This document shows, one piece after another, positions 20,533-39,071 of a stretch of DNA of 39,071 bases (position 1 is the first letter of the stretch; every line of letters starts with the position of its first letter). The notes beneath the pieces are model-generated. The model was not told where the DNA came from. It did not search any database and saw only the letters and a list, made by a program, of their open reading frames with translations. Both the position numbers and the translations under genes were made by a program. Source of the DNA: an uncultured Candidatus Altimarinota bacterium (GTDB taxonomy: Bacteria; Patescibacteriota; Gracilibacteria; BD1-5; UBA6164); contig CAJXJP010000006.1 in NCBI GenBank assembly GCA_913055215.1, forward strand, positions 1-39,071. Direction: 5' to 3'.

Positions 20533-20564
20533 AAAAAAAGAGATGTGAACATCTCTTTTTTTTT
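20533..20564. terminator. Bidirectional terminator
   Basis: A 14-bp stem (20533-20546 with 20549-20562) with A- and T-runs lies between the convergent methyltransferase and surface-protein genes. The surface gene's stop (20563-20565) abuts it. Confidence 0.85.
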
Positions 20565-22872
20565 ATTTTGCAATTTTTTGAGCAGCTAAGTAATCTCAAA
20601 TAAATTTACCGATTAACGGAGCTGGTTTATACAGAACATTTGAAGTATAATCAACGACTGTTCAAACATCTAGTAGTCCATCCGAATTTGCTTTTACATA
20701 TACTCTCTTTGATGCTAATGGTACTATATTACCATAAGCAGATCATTCTATACGTAATTGTTTCAAGGTATTTCCTCAGAATGCTTGAAATTTTCATCAA
20801 GATAATCATTTTTTCAAAGTAACGAATGTTCCTTCTAATTTAGAAACAGCATCATCGATATTAATATTTCCTCCTTTTACAACAAATGCAATATTAGCAT
20901 TTCAAATATTGATATTTGAGTAAATATTTAAATTTCAGTTTTCTATAATATAGGTTCTTGATTCTGGAATACTTGAAAATAAATCTGAATTTACTTCTAA
21001 ATTTTTATTTTTCAGAATAAAAACATTTGGTAAACCATTATATTTTTGAAAATGGTCTAATGTTGTAACAGTTGCTATTGCACTTCAAACTGTATCAATT
21101 TTTCAATTTAAATCATTTGAATATTCACCCCCTTCGTCTTGTAGTTTCGTAATAGTTGAAGTTTCAGAAACTTTTCTAGAATGACTTGAATAATCTCAGC
21201 TAGAAATTCATGCTCAAATAAAATTTTGATTTTTATTTGCATCAAGCCCATAAGTTGATGATGCAATTTTACTTAAGTTAGATAAGTTAGAACTTGCTTG
21301 AAGCATATTTGTACCACCACCAATAGTGGCAATTGTAGGCTTTGCTACTCTTACTTCTAAGTCAGTTGCAAAGTGAGCAGTTGGATATAATGTTCCTTTA
21401 TGACGTAGAGTTGTAATAAGTTTAGTATCTCCAAATGAATCACTTCATGGTACTCCAGTAACTTTTCAAACATAATCAGGATAACTATCAAATCTAAGTG
21501 TGTCTCCTGGTTTTAAAACCGTATCAAAAGATTTACATACTTCTGGATTTCAAACTAATGAACTATTTGAAGATTGTTTTACAACGCAAATTTCATCAAA
21601 TACTAATTCTGATTTCCCTGTATTTTTAACAAAAGGTTTTTCGAGTGTATGGGCTATATATGGATTCATACTATCTCAAATAACTACCGTATCCTTTGGT
21701 CAAAATTTCAAACTTCCATCCGCTGGAATAGAGTGTGTATCATATTTACATGTAGTTGAAGAACAATACGATGGGAAAACTCCATCTGATCACATTTCAC
21801 ATTCTTCATTTCTATCTCTTTGAACTATTTTATCTCCACAATAAGCTGTTGCTCATCCAGATGATGAACTTGATCATCCACCACTACTCGATGAAGATCA
21901 TCCTCATGATGAACTTGATCATCCACCACTACTTGATGAAGATCATCCTCATGATGAACTTGAACTTGATCCCCCACCACTACTTGATGAAGATCATCCT
22001 CATGATGAACTTGAACTTGATCATCCACTACTACTTGACGAAGATCATCCTCATGATGAACTTGATGATGTAGTTCAGTTATCTTCCGTACATGTATTTG
22101 TACAACCATTTGTTCCCCAACCAATTTTTAATGGATCTGCAAAATCACATTGTTCCGTTCCATTTTTAATTGCATCTCAACATACTGGATTCCCTCATCC
22201 ATTATTATCAGCTTTACACGAATTTGTACAACCGTTTGTTCCCCAACCTGCTTTTGAAGGATCTGCAGAATCACATTGTTCTGCTCAGTTTTTTACTCCA
22301 TCTCCACAATATTGCAGTTCAATGTTTAAACATTCATTTCCATGTTTTCTAAAATCTCCTAGATAAACATTATTGAAACTTTTTCTTGTTGATGTTCAAT
22401 TTGTCCATTGAGCTTTATTTCTACGTATAAAGTCATAATTTTGACTTCATCCTTCATAAATTTTATAATTTCAGATATTAAAAACAAATTGTAGAGTTCT
22501 TTTGTTTTTATCAACTGGTTTATTGAAAGTACAAGATGCTGCAATAGCAATTTGTTTTTCTTTAGATGCTGGAGTAAAATCACTCCATTTTAACCATGAT
22601 GCAGCATTATTACATCCTGATATTAATCCAGAATTAGATTGCCATAGTTTTACATCAGTATGCAAATTAGATATAGCTCTTTCTTCTCCTGCCCAATATT
22701 GATCATATACGTTTTCAATACGTTTATCTCCTTCTATATAGAGTGTCGCATTTTTTACAAATCATGGACAATAAGATTCCTTTGAGGAAACATCGCTATA
22801 GTTTACTGCTCATACTGTTTGAGTAACAGAAAGTAGTAGCGTAACTAAGAATACGTAATATGTTTTTTTCAT
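20563..22872 (-). CDS. Secreted Cys-rich repeat protein with Ser/Gly stalk (paralogue 1)
   Basis: The 769-residue product has a signal peptide (KKTYYVFLVTLLLSVTQTVG). An N-terminal domain reaches about residue 185 (LQTDV/LHTDV, WLKWSDFTPASKEKQIA, CTFNKP). Two Cys-rich repeats follow at about 187-262, each CGD(G/A)-KNG-EQCD-AD-GWGTNGCTN-C, of the DUF4215/myxococcus Cys-rich type. Residues 269-340 are purely Ser and Gly. A half repeat (YCGDKI...EECE) then leads into a beta-rich C-terminal domain with NIAFVVKGGNINI and the ending FIGDYLAAQKIAK. There is no membrane anchor, so it may be secreted or bound to the surface noncovalently. It has a paralogue directly upstream. An adhesin-like role is inference. 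Confidence 0.85.
21853..22068 (-). repeat. 72-codon pure Ser/Gly tandem region
   Basis: Every one of the 72 codons is Ser or Gly, in blocks of 4-6 Ser and 2-3 Gly. Twelve of the 25 Gly codons are TGA. At the DNA level it is an imperfect tandem repeat of about 45-54 bases. It looks like a flexible stalk expanded by repeat slippage. Confidence 0.9.
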
Positions 22873-22990: not shown

Positions 22991-23020
22991 ATAAAAAGAG
23001 AGAAGTTGATTTTCTCTCTT
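22991..23020 (-). terminator. Terminator of surface-protein gene 2
   Basis: A 9-bp stem AAGAGAGAA/TTCTCTCTT (22996-23004 with 23012-23020) is followed on the minus strand by a T-rich run. It overlaps the stop codon at 23019-23021. Confidence 0.65.
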
Positions 23021-25175
23021 ATTTAGCAATTTTTAATGAATCAATATAGTCTCAAATAAATTGTCACACTAGAGGTGAAGGCTTAAATAAGCTATTTGAA
23101 TTATAATTAATTACAATTCAAACATCTAATTGTTTATTGTTGTTTACTTTTAAATAAACCCTATTTGAAGCTAATTTTTCTAAATTTCCATATACTGCTC
23201 ATTGAATATGTAGTTTATTCTTAGTTGAACTTATTTCAGCTAAGTATTTTCATCACATATTATTTTTAGGGATTGCAATAAATGTTCCATTCAAATGTTG
23301 TACATTATTTTTGATCATTATATTTCATCATTTTACTACAAATGCGATATTTCATTTATCGTAAAGAATATCTGATTTTATAATAAGATTTCCACTTTCT
23401 ACTATAAAAGTTTTTGAGCCATTCAATCATACAAAGGCATCTGAATCTAGGATAACTGACTTATTTTTAATTATATGTATATTTTCTAATCAATTATATT
23501 TTTTAAAATCACTAAATCAATAACTACTCATAATTACTCATTCAGATTCATTTATTTTTGTATTTAAAGAATCATTATAACTTCATCCTTCATTTTTTAA
23601 ATCGCTAATAATATTATTATCTTTTGATTCTTTAGAATATGTGGAATAATTTCATTCTGAAACAAGAGGACCTATAAAGTTGTTATTTGAGTTTTTATTT
23701 GCTCAAAATTTTAAATCTACAATATCATTCATATTAGATAAACGACTGCTCGATTGCAATAGGCTTGTTCCTCATCATATAGTTGAAACTGCTGGCTTTG
23801 CAACTCTAACTATCATGCTTTGTGCAAATCAAGCATTATTATAAAACACTCCTTTATGTTTAATACTTGTTATAATTTCGGTATCTTGATAGGATACATT
23901 ATTTGAAATCCAGGAAGTATTTCATATTAAGGCTGGTACTTTTGAAAAATAAATTTTACCACTATATTTTGGAATAACTTTATTTAAAATCTCACATTGT
24001 TGTCTCGCTCATTGTAACGATGGGTTATTATGTTTCTTATAAATACATAATTTTTCGATATATAAGTCAGAACCTCCTGTATTTTGAATATATGGATGAT
24101 TATATCCGTACAAAATAAAAGGGTTTGAATCTTTTCCAATTATGAAATTTTTATTTGGTCAAAATTTTAAATCTCATTCTCACGGTATAGAAAATTCTTT
24201 ATATTTACATGTACTTTCCGAACAGTATTTAGGGAATTTTCCATCTGAAGAAATTTCACACTCTTCTTGAACTTCTCTTTGAATGATTCAATCTCAACAA
24301 ATTGCTACGTTAGGAGATTCAGCACCTCCTGCTCAGTCTACATCATCTGTATTTCATCATGTATTAATTGTTTTACATTGATTACTACATCAGTTTTTTC
24401 ACCATCATGCTTTGTTGTCATCTTTGTAATCGCATTGTTCAGTTCAATTTTTTATTCCATCTCAACAAGAATCATTGCTTACTCATCCTCAACTTCAATT
24501 ATCTGCTATACATGATTCTGTACATCAGTTTTTTCACCATCATGTTTTATTATCATCTTTGAAATCACATTGTTCAGTTCAATTTTTTATTCCATCTCAA
24601 CAGTATTGTAATTCAATATTCAAGCATTCGTTTCAGTGTTTACGAAAATCTGATAAATAAACATTTTTAAATGATTTTTCCTTATATGTTCAATTGCTCC
24701 AATCTTCCATATTTCTTCTTTTGAAATCAAAATTTTCTCCTCATCCAGGTAATATTTTGTAATTTCAAATATTAAAAACAAATTGTAAGTTTCTTTTATT
24801 TTTATTTTTAGGTTTGTTAAAAGTACACTGTGCAGTAATAGCAATTTGTTTTTCTTTTGAAGCAGGAGTAAAATCACTTAATTTTATCCATGCCGATGAA
24901 TTATTACAATTTGAAACAAGATTGTTATCAGATTGCCACAATCTTACATCCGTTTGTAAATAGGAAATAGCTCTTTCTTCTCATGCCCAATAGGCATCCC
25001 ATACATTTTCGACACGAATATCTCAATCAATATACAGACTTGCGCTTTTTTGAAATCATGAACAACTAGTTTCTTTTGTATTTAAATTCGAAAAATTTAT
25101 AGCACTAACTGTACTAATATTTCAAATAAAAAATAGAAAACTTAATAAATAAATTATACTTTTAGTAAAATTCAT
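23019..25175 (-). CDS. Secreted Cys-rich repeat protein (paralogue 2)
   Basis: The 718-residue product has the same plan as paralogue 1. After a signal peptide (MNFTKSIIYLLSFLFFIG) comes the N-terminal domain with LQTDVRLGQSDNN, SDFTPASKEKQIAITAQ and CTFNKPKNKNKRNLQFVFN. Two nearly identical Cys-rich repeats follow (CGDGIKNGTEQCDYKDDNK, then GWGKNGC), and then the half repeat ICGDGIIQREVQEECE. A C-terminal domain with NIAFVVKGGNIMI ends in FIGDYIDSLKIAK. The long Ser/Gly stalk is absent, replaced by a short Gly/Asp linker. In GWGKNGC the codons are TGA-TGG-TGA, aligned with GGT-TGG-GGA in paralogue 1. That shows within one gene pair that TGA replaces Gly, not Trp. Composition is more AT-rich and codon use has more TGA than in its paralogue. 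Confidence 0.85.
24390..24604 (-). repeat. Duplicated Cys-rich module within paralogue 2
   Basis: Two stretches (about 24390-24476 and 24512-24604) are almost identical in DNA over roughly 85 bases, each encoding one CGDGIKNGTEQCDYKDDNK module. The near identity points to recent duplication or gene conversion. Confidence 0.75.
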
Positions 25176-28709: not shown

Positions 28710-29414
28710 TTATGATTGTTTTCTTAATCTTTGGAAACCAAAAGCTAACATAATAGCTAATAATGCTAATAACATAAACTCAGCTGGCCCCGTTTGTGGA
28801 AGTCTTGTAACTTCAGTTTTTTTCATAGGTGCAATATTTTCACTTGATTCTTCTGACGCTTCACCTGATGTGAAGATTACACATTCTCTATGTTCTTCCG
28901 TATCATGTGTAATTTCTCAATTTGAAAGAATATTATGACTTGATATAGGGTATACAAGTAAACCAATATTTTCTCAGTTAGCAGCTTGATTTTTTTCAAG
29001 TTTATATGCATAACCTAGTTTTGATTTAAGCCAAGTAACTCTATCACCTGCATTAATTACATACCCTTCTTGATCTTCTACATATAATGAATTAAATTCA
29101 TCTGTATATTCCCAAAATGCTTCTCCTGATGGTTCTTGTGACCAAGTAACTTGTGATGGATTTAAGTTGATCATTTGAGGCATTTGTTGTTCTTCTTTAT
29201 AAAGAATTTTTTGAACATCAGTTTTGTTTAGGATATCATCACTTAAAAAACCTAAGTGATCACCTTCTCATTTTTCACTTCCAGTAAAACATTGATTACA
29301 TGAATTTTCTGAAAAAACTGCTTGAGTTGTACACTCAACTTCTTGATAATCTGCAAATGCTGGTAGCACCATCATACTCAATATGATGACTGCAAATACT
29401 TTTTTAATAGACAT
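28710..29414 (-). CDS. LPQTG-anchored surface protein
   Basis: The 234-residue product has a classical signal peptide MSIKKVFAVIILSMMVLPAF with cleavage expected at AFA-DY. A mature domain contains five Cys residues, two of them as CNQC. The C-terminal sorting signal is complete: LPQTG (about residues 207-211), a hydrophobic helix (FMLLALLAIMLAFGF) and the positive tail QRLRKQS. This is the LPXTG pattern cut by sortase A-type transpeptidases and joined to the cell wall. No sortase gene is in the window. The LPQTG Gly is GGG, while three other glycines are TGA. The mature domain is not recognised. It stands alone between two terminators. Confidence 0.85.
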
Positions 29415-33318: not shown

Positions 33319-35253
33319 TTATACTTCAACGATCATTGGAATAATCATTGGTTCTCTATCAATTCTTTGTAATAGGAATTTTTCTAGATCTGTTCTAATA
33401 ATTTTAATAAGATCTTTTTCTTCCATATCAGGTACGTCTTTGATAGTATTTTCATAAATATCTTTCGATTTTTTTATAATCATTCTATGAATATGTCTTA
33501 CTTCATCAAGATATACTAAACCTCTTGTTTCCAGTTTAATATGTCCCATAACTGCTTTTGTTTTTTTATCAATTTTGTATACAAGAACAAGGACCCCTGC
33601 ATTTTTCATTTTATCTCTTGCTTTAATAACATGAGATGTAGCAGTTCCCATACCATTCCCATCAATAATAATTTCTTGAATTGGTACCTTAATTCTTGAT
33701 CTGAATAGATTTCCGTTTGGAGCAAAATCGATAATGTTCCCGTTATCAATAAGTAAACATTTATCTTCTGGGAAACCAATACTTACTGCTGTATTTTTGT
33801 GAACTGTTCTAAAGTACAAGTCACCAAATACTGGCATAAAATATTTTGGTTTTACCAGATTTAACATAATTTTTTGTTCTTCTTGGAAAGCATGTCCACC
33901 AGTATGAACTTCACCATCATCTTTTGTGATAATATTTGCTCCGAGTTTAATTAGTTTGTTGATAACTCCAACAACTGATTTTTCATTCCCTGGAACAACT
34001 GAAGAAGAGAATACAATTGTATCTCCTTTTACAATTTCTAAAGAAGGGTGTCTTCATTCTGCCATTCTCGTTAAAGCTGAGAATTCTTCACCTTGAGAAC
34101 CAGTAGTAATAATTACTTGTTTATGAGGTGGTATTCCTTGAGTAGCTTTTGGTGTCATTTTTTTCACAATCCCTGGTTTCATTTTTAAGTAACCAAGTTC
34201 TTTTGCAATATTAACATTTTCTAACATTGATCTCCCTGAAAGGAAAATTGTTTTCCCATGTCTATCACAGATATCAATTAATTGTTGTACTCTTGAAATC
34301 CAAGATGAAAATGTTGCAATAATTAATCTTCCTTTTGTATGATTTTTTACAATTTTTTCTAATGTTTCACCAACATCTTTTTCACTCATTGAGAAACCTT
34401 TTCTTAATGAACCTGTTGAATCAGACATAAATAGATTGATTCCTCTTGCTCAGATTTCACCAATTCTAGATAAATCTGCTGGTTCATCAATAGCTGGAGT
34501 AAAGTCGATTTTGAAATCCCCCGTATGTACAAATTTAGCACCTGCTGGTGATTCTAAATATACTCATGCACAATCAGGAATTGAATGATTTACACGGAAA
34601 AATTCTACGTCAAATTGACCAACTTTAATTTTTTCTGTACTTCCTGCATCAACTTCAACAAAAGTTGAATGTGGAATAAGTCCAGCTTCATCTAATGATT
34701 TTTTAATAAGACCAATAGTAAATTTTGTCCCATAAATTGTTGGCATACCAAGAGCTGGTAATACATGTTTTAAAGAACCAATATGATCTAAATGGGCATG
34801 AGTAATAATCATCCCTTTAATTTTATCTTTATACTTTGTAAGAAAAGATACATCTGGAATTGAATAATTAACACCATGTAAATCTGCATCTGCAAATTGT
34901 ACACCACAGTCAATTAATACGATATCGTCTCAGTATTGAGCCATACCCATATTTTTTGCCCCAGTTTCATTATTCCCTCCAATTGGGATAAAACGAGTAT
35001 ATCCTTCTCTTAATGCTGGAAGGTAAAATTTAGTTTCAGGAAAAGTTGAAACAAATCTTCCTCTTACTTCTGTATCTTTAGCAGAAGGTTTTTTCTTTTG
35101 TTGTGGTTTTTTTGAATTGATATGTCTTTTTGGTTTTCTATCAGCTGGTTTTTCAACACTTTCTGCTTTATTTTCAACAGGAGCAACATTTGCTTCTTTT
35201 GAAACTTCCGAACCTGAAATTTCTTTATCTAATTCATCTAAAAAGTCTTTCAT
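33319..35253 (-). CDS. rnj: Ribonuclease J
   Basis: The 644-residue product is the metallo-beta-lactamase/beta-CASP nuclease that carries out 5'-3' exo- and endonucleolytic mRNA decay in bacteria without RNase E. An N-terminal basic, Lys/Pro-rich extension of about 70 residues precedes FIPIGGNNETGAKNMGM. The zinc motif is THAHLDHIGSLKHVLP (HxHxDH). HTGDFKIDFTPAID, SDSTGSLRKGFSMSE and the beta-CASP segments IIATFSSWISRVQQL and TTGSQGEEFSALTRMA follow, then GGHAFQEEQKIMLNLVKPKY with a further metal His. The RNase J C-terminal domain is present. The N-terminal extension resembles those of actinobacterial and CPR enzymes and may bind RNA. Confidence 0.94.
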
Positions 35254-35525: not shown

Positions 35526-36395
35526 TTATTTTTTCAAAAACTGCAAAAACTTTTCAACGTTTATTTCAATTTTTGTAATGTCCCGGTAATAATCTAAGAT
35601 AATATTTCATTCAGAAAAATCTGTTCCTGCAAATGTATTTTCTTGAAATAAGATTTTATCAAAGAAATTATATTTTAATTTTAAGACTTTGGATTTTTTT
35701 GTTTTTTCTTGAAAATCTTTGTTATGTAAAACATAATAAGTAAAAGTTTCCGCAAAATCTTCGTATTTATTAGTCATTGCATATCATGAAACAAAATCTT
35801 CTTGTTTCAGTCCTGGTTTTAATATTTTTGATGATTCCCAGCTTATATCATAAAAGAAATAACTACTATCCTTTAATACTTTTTTTTGTAAAAAGTGAAT
35901 ATCAACCACATGTGCAAATTCATGTATTCAAACAGATGACAATTCTCAATGTGGCATTTTCAAAACTCAAAATAACTTAATTGATTCATTTTTCATCCTC
36001 CCACGTACATCGATTTTTTCTTTATAAAATTCAATTTTCATATTTGAATAGTAATTTGAAAAATATTTTGATTCAAATATATTTCTTAGTAAATCTGTAT
36101 GACCTTGTGATTCCTCTGAAAATCCTGCTGGCATATAGTAAAATTGTATTTTTTTCGCAGATTCAAGTGGTATGTTTTCAGAATCACTTAACATTTCTTT
36201 TACTTTGTTATTTTTGATTTCTTCTTCTGTTAATTCATGGACATGACCGTGAGATTCGTCAATCATTTCTTGCTCATGAGTTTGTTCGATTTTAGTGACT
36301 ATAGAATGAAGCGCAATAAAAATTAGGAACGAAAAAACTATCGTCCCCAATAAAAATAATTGAATTTGTTTATATAAGTATTTTGGAATTTTCAT
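35526..36395 (-). CDS. Membrane-anchored zincin metalloprotease
   Basis: The 289-residue product has one N-terminal membrane helix (LFLLGTIVFSFLIFIALHSI, residues ~13-32). A His/Glu-rich stretch follows (ESHGHVHELTEEE), then an extracytoplasmic domain. The catalytic motif is IHEFAHVVD (HExxH plus Asp). About 50 residues later EDFAETFTYY supplies the likely third zinc ligand, a Glu, as in anthrax lethal factor-like (ATLF/M34-type) gluzincins. VSGYAMTNKYEDFAE resembles the Tyr-containing substrate region. Several Gly are TGA, including the one before IHEFAH. The start is 4 bases after the adjacent pilin-like gene stop, so it belongs to that operon. The substrate is unknown. Confidence 0.82.
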
Positions 36396-36399
36396 ATTA

Positions 36400-36810
36400 T
36401 TAAATTCAATACATAATTTTAATTACTGCTTTGATTATCACTCAAGCGAATACAACCGCTAAAAACCCTAAGATTCACCATTTAATTATATCTTTTGATT
36501 TTTTAATTTTTTCATCTTCTCCTGCACTCAATGTCATTTGTAATCAACCGTAAACAATTGCGCCTACAGCAAATAAACCTAAGTAAAAAGCAATATTTGT
36601 AACCCATTTTGAAATTTTCAACTGAATTGCCGATAAACCTGCTCATTCCATTTGTACAACTGATGTTCATTTAATACATTTATCTAAACTTTTTAGTGGA
36701 TCTTGACTACTTTCATCATAACTACAGTCTGCAGCATATGTTGAATGAAACGACATTCCTGAAAATAGAAGAGATAATACAATCATAAATCCTATAAATA
36801 TTTTTTTCAT
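36400..36810 (-). CDS. TrbC/VirB2-like exported two-helix protein A
   Basis: The 136-residue product has a signal peptide (MKKIFIGFMIVLSLLFSG, cleavage near TYA-AD) and a short Cys-containing region. Two hydrophobic helices are joined by the charged loop LSAGEDEKIKKSKDIIK: AFYLGLFAVGAIVYGGLQM and WGILGFLAVVFAGVIIKAV. This two-helix, basic-loop plan is that of VirB2/TrbC pilins of type IV secretion and of many short CPR proteins. Gly in YGG, GILG and FAG use TGA. It is last of four similar genes and 4 bases before the protease gene. Confidence 0.75.
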
Positions 36811-36820
36811 TGTTGTTTAA

Positions 36821-37216
36821 TTATATATTTAAGCCTTGAACGAGAGTAACTACTCAGTAAGAAAGTGAAACAATCGCAATACCAATAATAGCATATAAAA
36901 ATTGCATCCATGCTTTTTTAAATTCTTCTGGGTTCCCACGAGCTACAGCTAAACGGAAACCAACAAAAAGAAATACTCAAATAGAAATTACGAACATAAA
37001 AGATAAAATAGTATCTTGTAATCCTATAAAAAATGATGATACAATCTCAGTTCCTTCACCTGATACATCAACATTTGATGGTCATGTAACTCATCAAATA
37101 TTTAAAATATCATTTTCTAAACTTGCGCTTTCTGGAACATCACGAGTTGCTGCTTCAACGATTCAACTATAAAATGAACTCATAAAAGCTATACATGTAT
37201 ATAATAATTTTTTCAT
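36821..37216 (-). CDS. TrbC/VirB2-like exported two-helix protein B
   Basis: The 131-residue product has a signal peptide (MKKLLYTCIAFMSSFYSG, cleavage near VEA-AT). A short acidic region follows (PSNVDVSGEGTEIVSS). The two membrane helices are around FMFVISIGVFLFVGFRLAV and FLYAIIGIAIVSLSYGVV, with a loop RGNPEEFKKAWMQ. The loop has the same position as in the neighbours but differs in sequence. It is 10 bases from gene A and 4 bases from gene C, in one operon. Confidence 0.72.
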
Positions 37217-37220
37217 GTTT

Positions 37221-37604
37221 TTATAATGTGTTAAGAATATTCACAATCGACCATGCTGAGAGTGAAAATATAACTCAAACTAATGACCAAGTTATCCAAT
37301 TTTTTGCTTTTTTTACTTTTTCATCCTCCCCTCCAGATAACATATACATAATCCCACTTAAAGTCAGAGCGACAACAGCAACAACTGGAACGTATTGAAT
37401 AAGCATTTGGATTAAGTTTCAGATTAAATCTCAAAATACATCTTTATCAATATTTGCTGGACTAGGAGCATGTGATTTTTTATCTTCACATCCTGGTAAT
37501 CCATAACAATTAATTACTGGAGCATCAGCTAAAACTGTATGAAGAGATCCGACACAATAAGCTGAAACAAAAATGAATAATTTAAATAATTTTGTGTTTT
37601 TCAT
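37221..37604 (-). CDS. TrbC/VirB2-like exported two-helix protein C
   Basis: The 127-residue product has a signal peptide (KLFKLFIFVSAYCVGSLHTV, cleavage near VLA-DA) and a small Cys pair (INCYGLPGCED) that may form a disulfide. Two membrane helices follow, IQYVPVVAVVALTLSGIMYM and WSLVGVIFSLSAWSIVNIL, with the loop LSGGEDEKVKKAKNWI. This loop is nearly the same as in protein A and as in pilin-like proteins widely seen in CPR genomes. It is 4 bases from gene B and 7 bases from gene D. Confidence 0.75.
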
Positions 37605-37611
37605 AAATTTT

Positions 37612-38028
37612 TTATTGAAAGAGTAAGAAACGCATAGCCGAAACTAAGTAGTAAGAAGAGCCTGCAACAACCAATGCAATAATACCAGCTGTAAATATTG
37701 ATTTCCCCTTTGATAAAAGTTCATCCTGCCCATGATACATAATCATATATCCTGCTCAGACCGTCATAATTAATAATGAAGCAGAACCAAGTAAAATCAT
37801 CAGCATTTGGATAATTTTAGACAAATAAAAATTTGTATTTGCTGTAACACTTCATTTATCAGCAGGTTTTGCTCAAGGAAAAAGGTCACCTGTTCTGATT
37901 TCGAAACCAGAGGAAGATATATCTTCTGTAGTAGGTCATGTATCTTTACTTGCACTTAATTGATCAACTCATGTAAAGCCGAAAAAAGTGAATGAAATCA
38001 CTAGTACAATCATAATTTTTTTCAACAC
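37612..38028 (-). CDS. TrbC/VirB2-like exported two-helix protein D
   Basis: The 138-residue product probably starts at the GTG at 38028 (V/M-LKKIMIVLVISFTFFG), giving a normal signal peptide. An in-frame ATG at 38076 would add 16 residues and is less likely. The mature part has SSSGFEIRTGDLFPGAKPAD, then two helices: IIQMLMILLGSASLLIMTV and AGIIALVVAGSSYYLVSAM, with the loop HGQDELLSKGKSIF. It is the first gene of a five-gene operon D-C-B-A-protease and diverges from a glycosyltransferase gene. Confidence 0.7.
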
Positions 38029-38128: not shown

Positions 38129-39071
38129 ATGAAAATAGCAATTGTCCATGAAATGTTAGTGAAACTTGGTGGAGCGGAAAAAGTTGTAGAAAAAATGTTA
38201 GACATGTTTCCTGAAGCAGACTTATTTACTCTCATATATGATGAAGAAAAAACATGAAAAATATTTCCAAAAAAATCAATTCATAAACAAGTTTTTAAAC
38301 TTCCTAGCCAGAAAATATATAACTTCACAAAAAAACAAAGATTTTGTCTTCCTCTTATGCCCAGAAGTATAGAACAGTTAGATTTTTCAGAATACGATGT
38401 GGTTTTATGTAGTTCTAGTTGATTTGCACATGGAGCTATAACAAAACCTGAAACAAAATTTATTGTATATTATCATTCTCCAGCTCGTTATATTTGGGAC
38501 TGGACAAATGAATACAAAAAAGATATCGGATTTGATTCTGGAATCAAAGCATATTTTTTAAATAAATTATTTCTACAATTGAGAATTTGGGATGTAATTG
38601 CATCAAATAGAGTTGATATTGTGTTAGCAAATGCAGAGAATACAGCTGGAAGGATTAAAAAATATTATCGTAGAGAGAGTGAAATTCTCTATCCACCAGT
38701 TGAAGTTTCACGTTTTCAAAAAGAATGAATATCTGAAAAAAATTCTTTTTTTGAAGCTAATGATTATTATATAATAATCTCGGCATTAACTGAATTTAAG
38801 AAAATTGATATCGCTATTTCTGCATTTAATCAAATGCCTAATAAAAATTTACTTATAATTTGAGCATGAGACGCAGATGAAACTCTAAAAAAACAAGTAA
38901 ATTGAAAAAATATTGTTTTTAGTGGCCCTCAATACTGAGACCAATTAGTATCTCTCGTTCAAAATTCTCTTGGTTTAGTATTTCCAGGTGAAGAAGATTT
39001 CTGAATTGTACCAATCGAGGTAATGGCCGCATGAAAACCAGTTTTTGCTTATCATGGCGGTTGATTGTTAG
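38129..39071 (+). CDS. GT4-family glycosyltransferase (3' truncated by window)
   Basis: The first 314 residues are visible. The N-terminal GT-B half begins MKIAIVHEMLVKLGGAEKVV, the acceptor-side motif of WbaZ/WcaI-like mannosyl- or rhamnosyltransferases. CSSSGFAHGAI and VYYHSPARYIWDWT follow. The donor half has LYPPVEVSRF, NLLIIGAGDADETL, IVFSGPQYGDQL and FPGEEDFGIVPIEVMAAGKP, the E-x7-E nucleotide-sugar site of retaining GT4 enzymes. Eight or more Gly are TGA, including those in GEEDFGIVP and AAGKP. It should add a sugar to a surface polysaccharide or glycolipid. Donor and acceptor cannot be told from the sequence. Confidence 0.88.

What the first reader, a model, noticed from the sequence alone, without database searches (positions are those of the whole stretch)
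36400..38028. Four tandem pilin-like proteins in one operon with a surface protease
Four exported proteins of 127-138 residues share the plan signal peptide, short soluble part, two helices and a charged loop (G/S-GEDEK-KK-K in two of them), but are otherwise divergent. They are packed with 4-10 base gaps and followed by a membrane-anchored HExxH gluzincin. No VirB4/VirB6/VirD4 gene is seen in the window. This could be a multi-subunit surface fibre or pore with a dedicated processing or toxin-like protease, perhaps used on a host cell.
Basis: partly seen in the sequence, partly recalled or inferred. Interest (0 to 1): 0.65.

Follow-up and report, generated by a model that had tools for sequence, protein, structure and literature searches.

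The report
Four-pilin secretion operon with surface protease
In tiny parasitic-type bacteria of the Gracilibacteria, four distinct pilus-like proteins and one membrane-anchored protease form an ancient operon; it belongs to a known kind of secretion machine, but the four pilins have kept separate identities across a whole order, which suggests a tube or channel built from four different parts.

Summary
Read with genetic code 25 (TGA=Gly), window 35526-38028 (- strand) holds four VirB2-like pilins (A-D) with 4-10 bp gaps, followed 4 bp later by a membrane-anchored HExxH...E zinc protease. This is no one-off. In 35 of 38 relatives' neighbourhoods from two families of the order, four pilins precede the same protease. 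The four positions are four old paralogue lineages: same-position identity between genomes is 36-39%, against 17-26% between positions within one genome. Order A-B-C-D held in 22 of 22 arrays outside the training set. The missing VirB4, coupling protein and PrgI/VirB3 lie elsewhere in the same genome, so this is part of the dispersed Patescibacteria type IV secretion system, in which pilin arrays are already published. What appears new is the fixed four-part identity and the coupled protease. The protease resembles the anthrax lethal factor catalytic domain in fold, but it is a conserved single-copy surface enzyme found class-wide, mostly away from pilins. An intact array also survives without it in one genome. 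It is therefore coupled to the array but not strictly dedicated to it, and a toxin role is unsupported.

The parts
37612..38028 (-). Pilin A: signal peptide, soluble stretch, two-TM hairpin with loop GQDELLSKGK; start probably TTG at 38025
   Evidence: Pfam sub-threshold in the window protein, 20 of 33 orthologues match PF18895; position lineage A in the tree
37221..37604 (-). Pilin B: T4SS_pilin, loop GEDEKVKKAK, CYGLPGC motif before the hairpin
   Evidence: (PF18895 2.6e-11, TrbC 2.2e-5)
36821..37216 (-). Pilin C: T4SS_pilin, loop ARGNPEEFKKA
   Evidence: (PF18895 3.4e-7)
36400..36810 (-). Pilin D: T4SS_pilin, loop GEDEKIKKSK, two conserved Cys in the extracytoplasmic stretch
   Evidence: PF18895 1.4e-9; predicted helical hairpin; >=2 Cys in 33 of 34
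35526..36395 (-). Membrane-anchored zinc metalloprotease (zincin): N-terminal TM helix, HEFAH 158-162, third-ligand motif YEDFAE 211-216
   Evidence: pLDDT 86.9; best folds: lethal factor catalytic domain
33319..35253 (-). RNase J, the conserved downstream neighbour; separated from the protease by 272 bp (median 241 bp in relatives), so probably its own unit
38129..39071 (+). Glycosyltransferase, divergent; its 5' end marks the upstream edge of the pilin operon

Best explanation
Genes 38028-35526 (-) are one operon of the Patescibacteria-type (monoderm, MPF-FATA-like) type IV secretion system. A-D are four VirB2-like pilin paralogues, each exported by Sec and sitting as a two-helix hairpin with a short charged loop on the cytoplasmic side. 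They are four distinct subunits that have not replaced one another, so the surface tube or membrane channel they build is probably heteromeric, or has segments made of different pilins (for example base, shaft and tip), powered by the VirB4 ATPase encoded elsewhere. The co-transcribed protease is anchored by one N-terminal helix with its catalytic domain outside the cell. It most likely trims or releases cell-surface proteins, the pilins being the leading candidates, so it acts as a maturation or shedding enzyme rather than a toxin. Shown: the genes, family membership of B-D, conserved order, separate lineages, the complete zinc motif, and T4SS genes elsewhere in the genome. Inferred: co-transcription, assembly into one structure, its use on a host cell, and the substrate of the protease.
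For: Pfam/NCBIfam pilin matches. Protease in 57 of 60 relatives; 35 of 38 neighbourhoods have exactly four pilins just upstream on the same strand. Tree of 149 pilins: B and D each one side of a branch (SH-aLRT 89, 92), A and C two changes each, against a shuffled mean near 32. Best match in another genome is the same position in 3957 of 4422 cases; mean same-position identity 36-39% versus 17-26% for paralogues in one genome. Order A-B-C-D in 18 of 18 complete arrays not used for training and in 4 of 4 arrays standing apart from the protease or lacking it. Median gaps A-B 7, B-C 9, C-D 10, D-protease 6 bp, against 241 bp to RNase J. VirB4 (PF19044 1.8e-26), coupling protein (PF02534 7.8e-13) and PrgI (1.8e-11) elsewhere in the genome. 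In G031 the A-B-C genes lie next to a coupling-protein-sized gene (946 aa, 2 TM) and multi-TM pilins. HExxH and E216 conserved. T4SS with pilins is essential for epibiotic growth in a Saccharibacterium (PMC10633639).
Against: No structure of a mixed complex was predicted or seen. The pilin hairpin model found no significant match to a solved VirB2 pilin (small helical hairpins rarely do). VirB6 was not detected in the genome, as published for the class. The protease persists class-wide beside unrelated genes, and an intact array lacks it in G044, so it cannot be strictly required for the pilins. Conserved neighbourhood alone is weak proof: RNase J stays with the protease just as often (35 of 37).
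Confidence: 0.5

Rival explanations
1. The array is a T4SS pilin set, but the protease is an unrelated resident surface protease that only shares the transcript.
For: Outside the order the protease is mostly not next to pilins. In G019 it stands apart with RNase J while A-B-C-D stay between GT and PyrH-RpmH-RnpA-YidC. G044 keeps the array and has lost the protease.
Against: Median 6 bp spacing kept across two families while flanking genes change. D stays beside the protease when A-C have moved in G031. Named outgroup loci L176-L178 and G105 have pilin genes divergently placed near it.
Confidence: 0.35
2. The pilin array is a reservoir for variation: duplicated pilins diverge to fit different hosts, as proposed for Patescibacteria VirB2 arrays and for Bartonella.
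For: Proposed in PMC12102498 for arrays of 2-11 genes with about 25% mean identity. The soluble N-terminal stretches vary in length and sequence.
Against: Four lineages in fixed order for the age of the order, with fixed copy number. Amplification with variation would give lineage-specific duplicates, which the tree does not show.
Confidence: 0.1
3. The proteins are not pilus subunits but four small membrane hairpins forming an inner-membrane channel or scaffold of the T4SS.
For: Multi-domain pilin-family proteins (328 and 305 aa) sit beside the coupling protein in this genome, so the hairpin is used in other contexts. Foldseek shows only generic helical hairpins. Other monoderm T4SSs lack pilins (PMC12102498).
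Against: Pfam T4SS_pilin and TrbC/VirB2 matches, and VirB2-like topology with an extracytoplasmic stretch. Pilin arrays in Saccharibacteria lie inside the T4SS cluster (PMC10633639).
Confidence: 0.15
4. The protease is a toxin-like effector acting on the host bacterium.
For: Top fold matches are anthrax lethal factor chains, with weak ATLF profile matches.
Against: N-terminal membrane anchor in the orthologues; single strong copy and near-universal retention in the order. The ATLF score is below Pfam's cut-off. From my own knowledge, the same clan holds resident surface-acting enzymes such as Pro-Pro endopeptidase PPEP-1, which releases the producer's own adhesins (PMC11477304).
Confidence: 0.06

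Closest known systems
VirB2-like pilin arrays of the Patescibacteria T4SS (Quinonero-Coronel 2025, PMC12102498; Southlakia epibionticum SEML1_0006-0019, PMC10633639)
   Same: Tandem, divergent T4SS_pilin/VirB2-family genes in a Patescibacterium; T4SS genes scattered in Gracilibacteria; VirB4 and PrgI present.
   Different: Here copy number and order are fixed at four, each position is its own lineage across an order, and a zinc protease ends the operon. Published arrays are described as 2-11 highly variable genes, most abundant in Microgenomatia and Saccharimonadia, with no such protease mentioned in the text read.
Pfam PF18895 T4SS_pilin / PF04956 TrbC-VirB2
   Same: Signal peptide, two hydrophobic helices, short charged loop; B, C and D over the PF18895 cut-off.
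   Different: Longer extracytoplasmic N-terminal stretch; A is below the cut-off in the window protein; four co-encoded paralogues instead of one major pilin.
Lethal-factor-like zinc proteases (ATLF PF07737, including PPEP-1 from own knowledge) and Peptidase_Mx1 PF15890 / TIGR04549 lipoprotein HExxH
   Same: HExxH plus a downstream (T/S)NxYEDFAE motif; predicted fold closest to the lethal factor catalytic domain.
   Different: Profile scores of the window protein below the curated cut-offs (Mx1 only just); N-terminal TM anchor instead of free secretion, toxin domains or a lipobox; linked to pilins.
Tandem virB2 paralogues of Bartonella and Anaplasma (cited in PMC12102498)
   Same: Several VirB2 paralogues in a row in a T4SS.
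   Different: Those are read as lineage-specific amplification for variation; the four positions here are ancient and colinear.

Membership tests
T4SS pilin (PF18895 / VirB2-like) | Profile match over the curated cut-off | tested here: met
   B, C, D met (43.9, 30.7, 38.3 against 26.6 bits). A itself is not over the cut-off; 20 of 33 A orthologues match at E<=0.01.
T4SS pilin (PF18895 / VirB2-like) | Signal peptide plus two-TM hairpin with a short charged loop | tested here: met
   Hydropathy calls and sequences, charged loops, AlphaFold model of D with helices 59-94 and 99-135. Signal cleavage itself was not tested with a dedicated predictor.
T4SS pilin (PF18895 / VirB2-like) | Assembly into a pilus | not testable with these tools
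   Needs microscopy or proteomics.
Patescibacteria T4SS | VirB4 ATPase in the genome | tested here: met
   558-aa protein on contig C2, PF19044 1.8e-26, AAA_10 4.8e-12.
Patescibacteria T4SS | PrgI/VirB3 and coupling protein in the genome | tested here: met
   PrgI on C4 (1.8e-11), with a pilin two genes on; coupling protein PF02534 7.8e-13 on C5.
Patescibacteria T4SS | VirB6 homologue | tested here: inconclusive
   No TrbL or TrbL_3 match. The TrbL_3 search rang in no control genome; the published work also finds VirB6 absent or scarce in this class and suspects divergence (PMC12102498).
Lethal-factor-like (ATLF) protease | HExxH and downstream Glu zinc ligand | tested here: met
   H158, E159, H162 and E216 invariant in 35 orthologues.
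Lethal-factor-like (ATLF) protease | Pfam ATLF score over the cut-off | tested here: not met
   19.9 against 27.4 bits; 13 of 35 orthologues match at E<=0.001. Not filed as a member.
Lethal-factor-like (ATLF) protease | Catalytic-domain fold | tested here: inconclusive
   Top four Foldseek matches are lethal factor chains, probability 0.92-0.99, but best E 2.1e-3 and TM (query) 0.29-0.36.
Peptidase_Mx1 (PF15890) | Pfam score over the cut-off | tested here: inconclusive
   Window protein 25.2 against 25.6 bits, just below; 30 of 35 orthologues match at E<=0.001, best 6.6e-11.
VirB2 variation array | Lineage-specific duplication, variable copy number | tested here: not met
   Fixed four, position-specific lineages.

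The most novel reading that the evidence does not exclude
A hetero-four-subunit type IV secretion pilus or channel in a bacterial order, made of obligately different VirB2-like pilins, each with its own place in the assembly, and matured or shed by a membrane-anchored lethal-factor-like protease encoded with it; used to contact or feed on host bacteria.
Probability: 0.3. Interest if true: 0.68.

Novelty: new variant of a known kind. Interest (0 to 1): 0.47.

Why it matters
The role of the T4SS in Patescibacteria is unknown although it is essential where tested (PMC11665869, PMC10633639). Pilin arrays have been read as host-adaptation variants. The fixed four-lineage array argues instead for a mixed filament or channel, which would be unlike the single major pilin of the well-studied VirB2/TrbC-type pili, and it names a candidate processing enzyme. 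Both are concrete, testable targets: four named subunits and one named protease.

Tried and rejected
(1) Table 11 reading: broken genes; rejected for code 25. (2) 'No T4SS in this organism': rejected, core genes found on other contigs. (3) Protease as strictly dedicated to pilins: rejected by class-wide distribution (present in 25 of 36 other-order genomes of the class; none of the 20 such neighbourhoods read has the four-pilin array beside it) and by G044. (4) Search for the A-B-C-D array in other families of the class: 16 loci with pilin clusters showed singles, pairs and triples and no fourfold array with clear position matches. A family lacking the protease (f7) has a five-pilin array beside a PilT-like ATPase with ambiguous position matches; colinearity with A-D not claimed. 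(5) Foldseek of pilin D: nothing significant. (6) PDB sequence search with the pilin profile: only chance matches. (8) Rfam, tRNA and promoter scans: nothing informative. (9) VirB6 by two Pfam families: none. (10) Own genome's other weak protease matches (C3, C12) were not followed.

Full report
WHAT IS THERE. The window is contig C6 of a 1.39-Mb, 94%-complete genome. Its genes are open only when TGA is read as glycine (table 25), and named relatives are nearly all 'Candidatus Gracilibacteria'. On the - strand, four small exported proteins (A 37612-38028, B 37221-37604, C 36821-37216, D 36400-36810) are followed by a 289-aa protease (35526-36395). Gaps are 7, 4, 10 and 4 bp. RNase J follows 272 bp later; a glycosyltransferase diverges upstream.

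WHAT THE SMALL PROTEINS ARE. Pfam T4SS_pilin is over its curated cut-off for B, C and D; TrbC/VirB2 also matches B (2.2e-5) and C (0.0023). NCBIfam's closest model for B and D is a pilin-like conjugal transfer protein of the Mbov_0395 family, below its cut-off. A is below the cut-off, but 20 of 33 orthologues match. The plan is signal peptide, short extracytoplasmic stretch, and a two-helix hairpin with a charged loop (GQDELLSKGK, GEDEKVKKAK, GNPEEFKKAW, GEDEKIKKSK). The model of D is a helical hairpin with pLDDT above 90 in the core. D keeps two cysteines before the hairpin in nearly all genomes, suggesting a disulphide-held outer loop (inference).

CONSERVATION. The protease is found in 57 of 60 genomes. 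I read 38 neighbourhoods including the window's own, chosen for the protease and not for pilins: 35 have exactly four pilins directly upstream on the same strand. The flanking genes differ between the two main families (glycosyltransferase and flippase-like protein versus a solute-binding protein and membrane proteins), so the block is not merely carried along in one long syntenic stretch, although RNase J stays too (35 of 37). Spacing separates the two cases: median 6 bp from D to the protease and 241 bp from the protease to RNase J, so the protease looks co-transcribed with the pilins and RNase J does not.

FOUR LINEAGES, NOT FOUR COPIES. In a tree of 149 pilins, B and D are each one side of a branch (SH-aLRT 89 and 92) and A and C need two changes each, against about 32 in shuffles; the alignment is short (115 columns) and many forks are open. 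Independent of the tree, mean identity between genomes is 36-39% at the same position, but 17-26% between positions of one genome; the best match in another genome is the same position in 3957 of 4422 comparisons. Position models built on those arrays give the order A-B-C-D in 18 of 18 complete arrays that share no sampled 50-mer with the training set, and in 4 of 4 arrays that stand apart from the protease or lack it. The four paralogues therefore predate the order's radiation and have been kept as four different things. This argues against recent amplification for variation and for different roles in one assembly (inference).

THE T4SS IS ELSEWHERE IN THE GENOME. VirB4 (558 aa, C2), a VirD4-type coupling protein (932 aa, C5) followed by two multi-domain T4SS_pilin proteins, and PrgI plus a further pilin (C4) are present. 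VirB6 was not found. This matches the published dispersed T4SS of Gracilibacteria, with VirB2 arrays of 2-11 genes known in Patescibacteria (PMC12102498) and essential pilins in a Saccharibacterial T4SS (PMC10633639). In relative G031, A-B-C lie next to a 946-aa protein with the size and position of the coupling protein and its multi-TM pilins, while D stays with the protease.

THE PROTEASE. One N-terminal helix, then a domain with HExxH and (T/S)NxYEDFAE, invariant at the catalytic positions in 35 orthologues. Profile matches of the window protein to Peptidase_Mx1, Peptidase_Mx and ATLF are below the curated cut-offs, Mx1 only just. The model (pLDDT 86.9) has lethal factor chains as its four best fold matches, but weakly (best E 2.1e-3). 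The lysine-rich start before the helix suggests that the domain faces outward (inference). The same clan, from my own knowledge, holds PPEP-1, a secreted protease that releases the producer's own adhesins (PMC11477304); that is a model for action, not evidence. Outside the order it is present in 25 of 36 class genomes sampled and in only 5 of the remaining genomes of the phylum draw, weakly. There it stands mostly next to ordinary genes, with pilin genes on the opposite strand nearby in G105 and in named loci L176-L178. Inside the order it is apart from the array in G019, G028 and G012, and missing from an intact array in G044. It is thus a resident surface protease captured in, or anciently next to, the pilin operon, and not absolutely required for it.

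MECHANISM. Most likely: A-D are exported, inserted as hairpins and assembled by the VirB4-powered T4SS into a mixed tube or channel on the cell surface; the protease trims their outer N-terminal stretches or sheds them or other surface proteins. Assembly, substrate and host contact are inferred, not shown.

LIMITS. Start codons were chosen by rule. No complex could be modelled here. Absence from the text read of PMC12102498 is not proof that its supplements lack this operon.

Noticed in passing
window 20563-22872 and 23019-25175 (-): Two large related exported proteins (769 and 718 aa) with repeated CGDGIKNGTEQCD-type motifs; one has a long Gly/Ser repeat. Probably surface proteins and possible substrates of a surface protease.
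   Followed up: no
window 28710-29414 (-): 234-aa exported protein ending in an LPxTG-like sorting signal (LPQTGPAEFMLLALLAIMLAFGFQRLRKQS), conserved beside YidC in relatives.
   Followed up: partly
L001:4298-9511 (own genome C5:24297-29511): VirD4-type coupling protein followed by T4SS_pilin proteins with two or three hairpin domains (328 and 305 aa): pilin hairpins fused into multi-domain proteins.
   Followed up: partly
L003:5860-7395 (own genome C4): PrgI, an unidentified 208-aa protein in the place expected for TrsD, then a pilin; next to the TM4/solute-binding/TM6 genes that flank the four-pilin array in the sister family.
   Followed up: partly
L189-L192: Class relatives of family f7, which lack the protease, carry a five-pilin array directly after a PilT-like ATPase and convergent to MetG and type IV pseudopilin genes.
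   Followed up: partly
L186:5378-10537 (G044): Natural absence of the protease from its place between pilin D and a split RNase J, with A-D intact.
   Followed up: yes
L003:2648-4646 (own genome C4:38647-40645): Three tandem, very similar type IV pilin genes (GFTLIELMIVIAIISVLAVTLVPQLTGAQAR...), a separate type IV pilus system.
   Followed up: no
L188:5683-10878 (G042), L096:3313-6603 (G105): Very large proteins (1732 and 1097 aa) with a T4SS_pilin-like hairpin region; function unknown.
   Followed up: no
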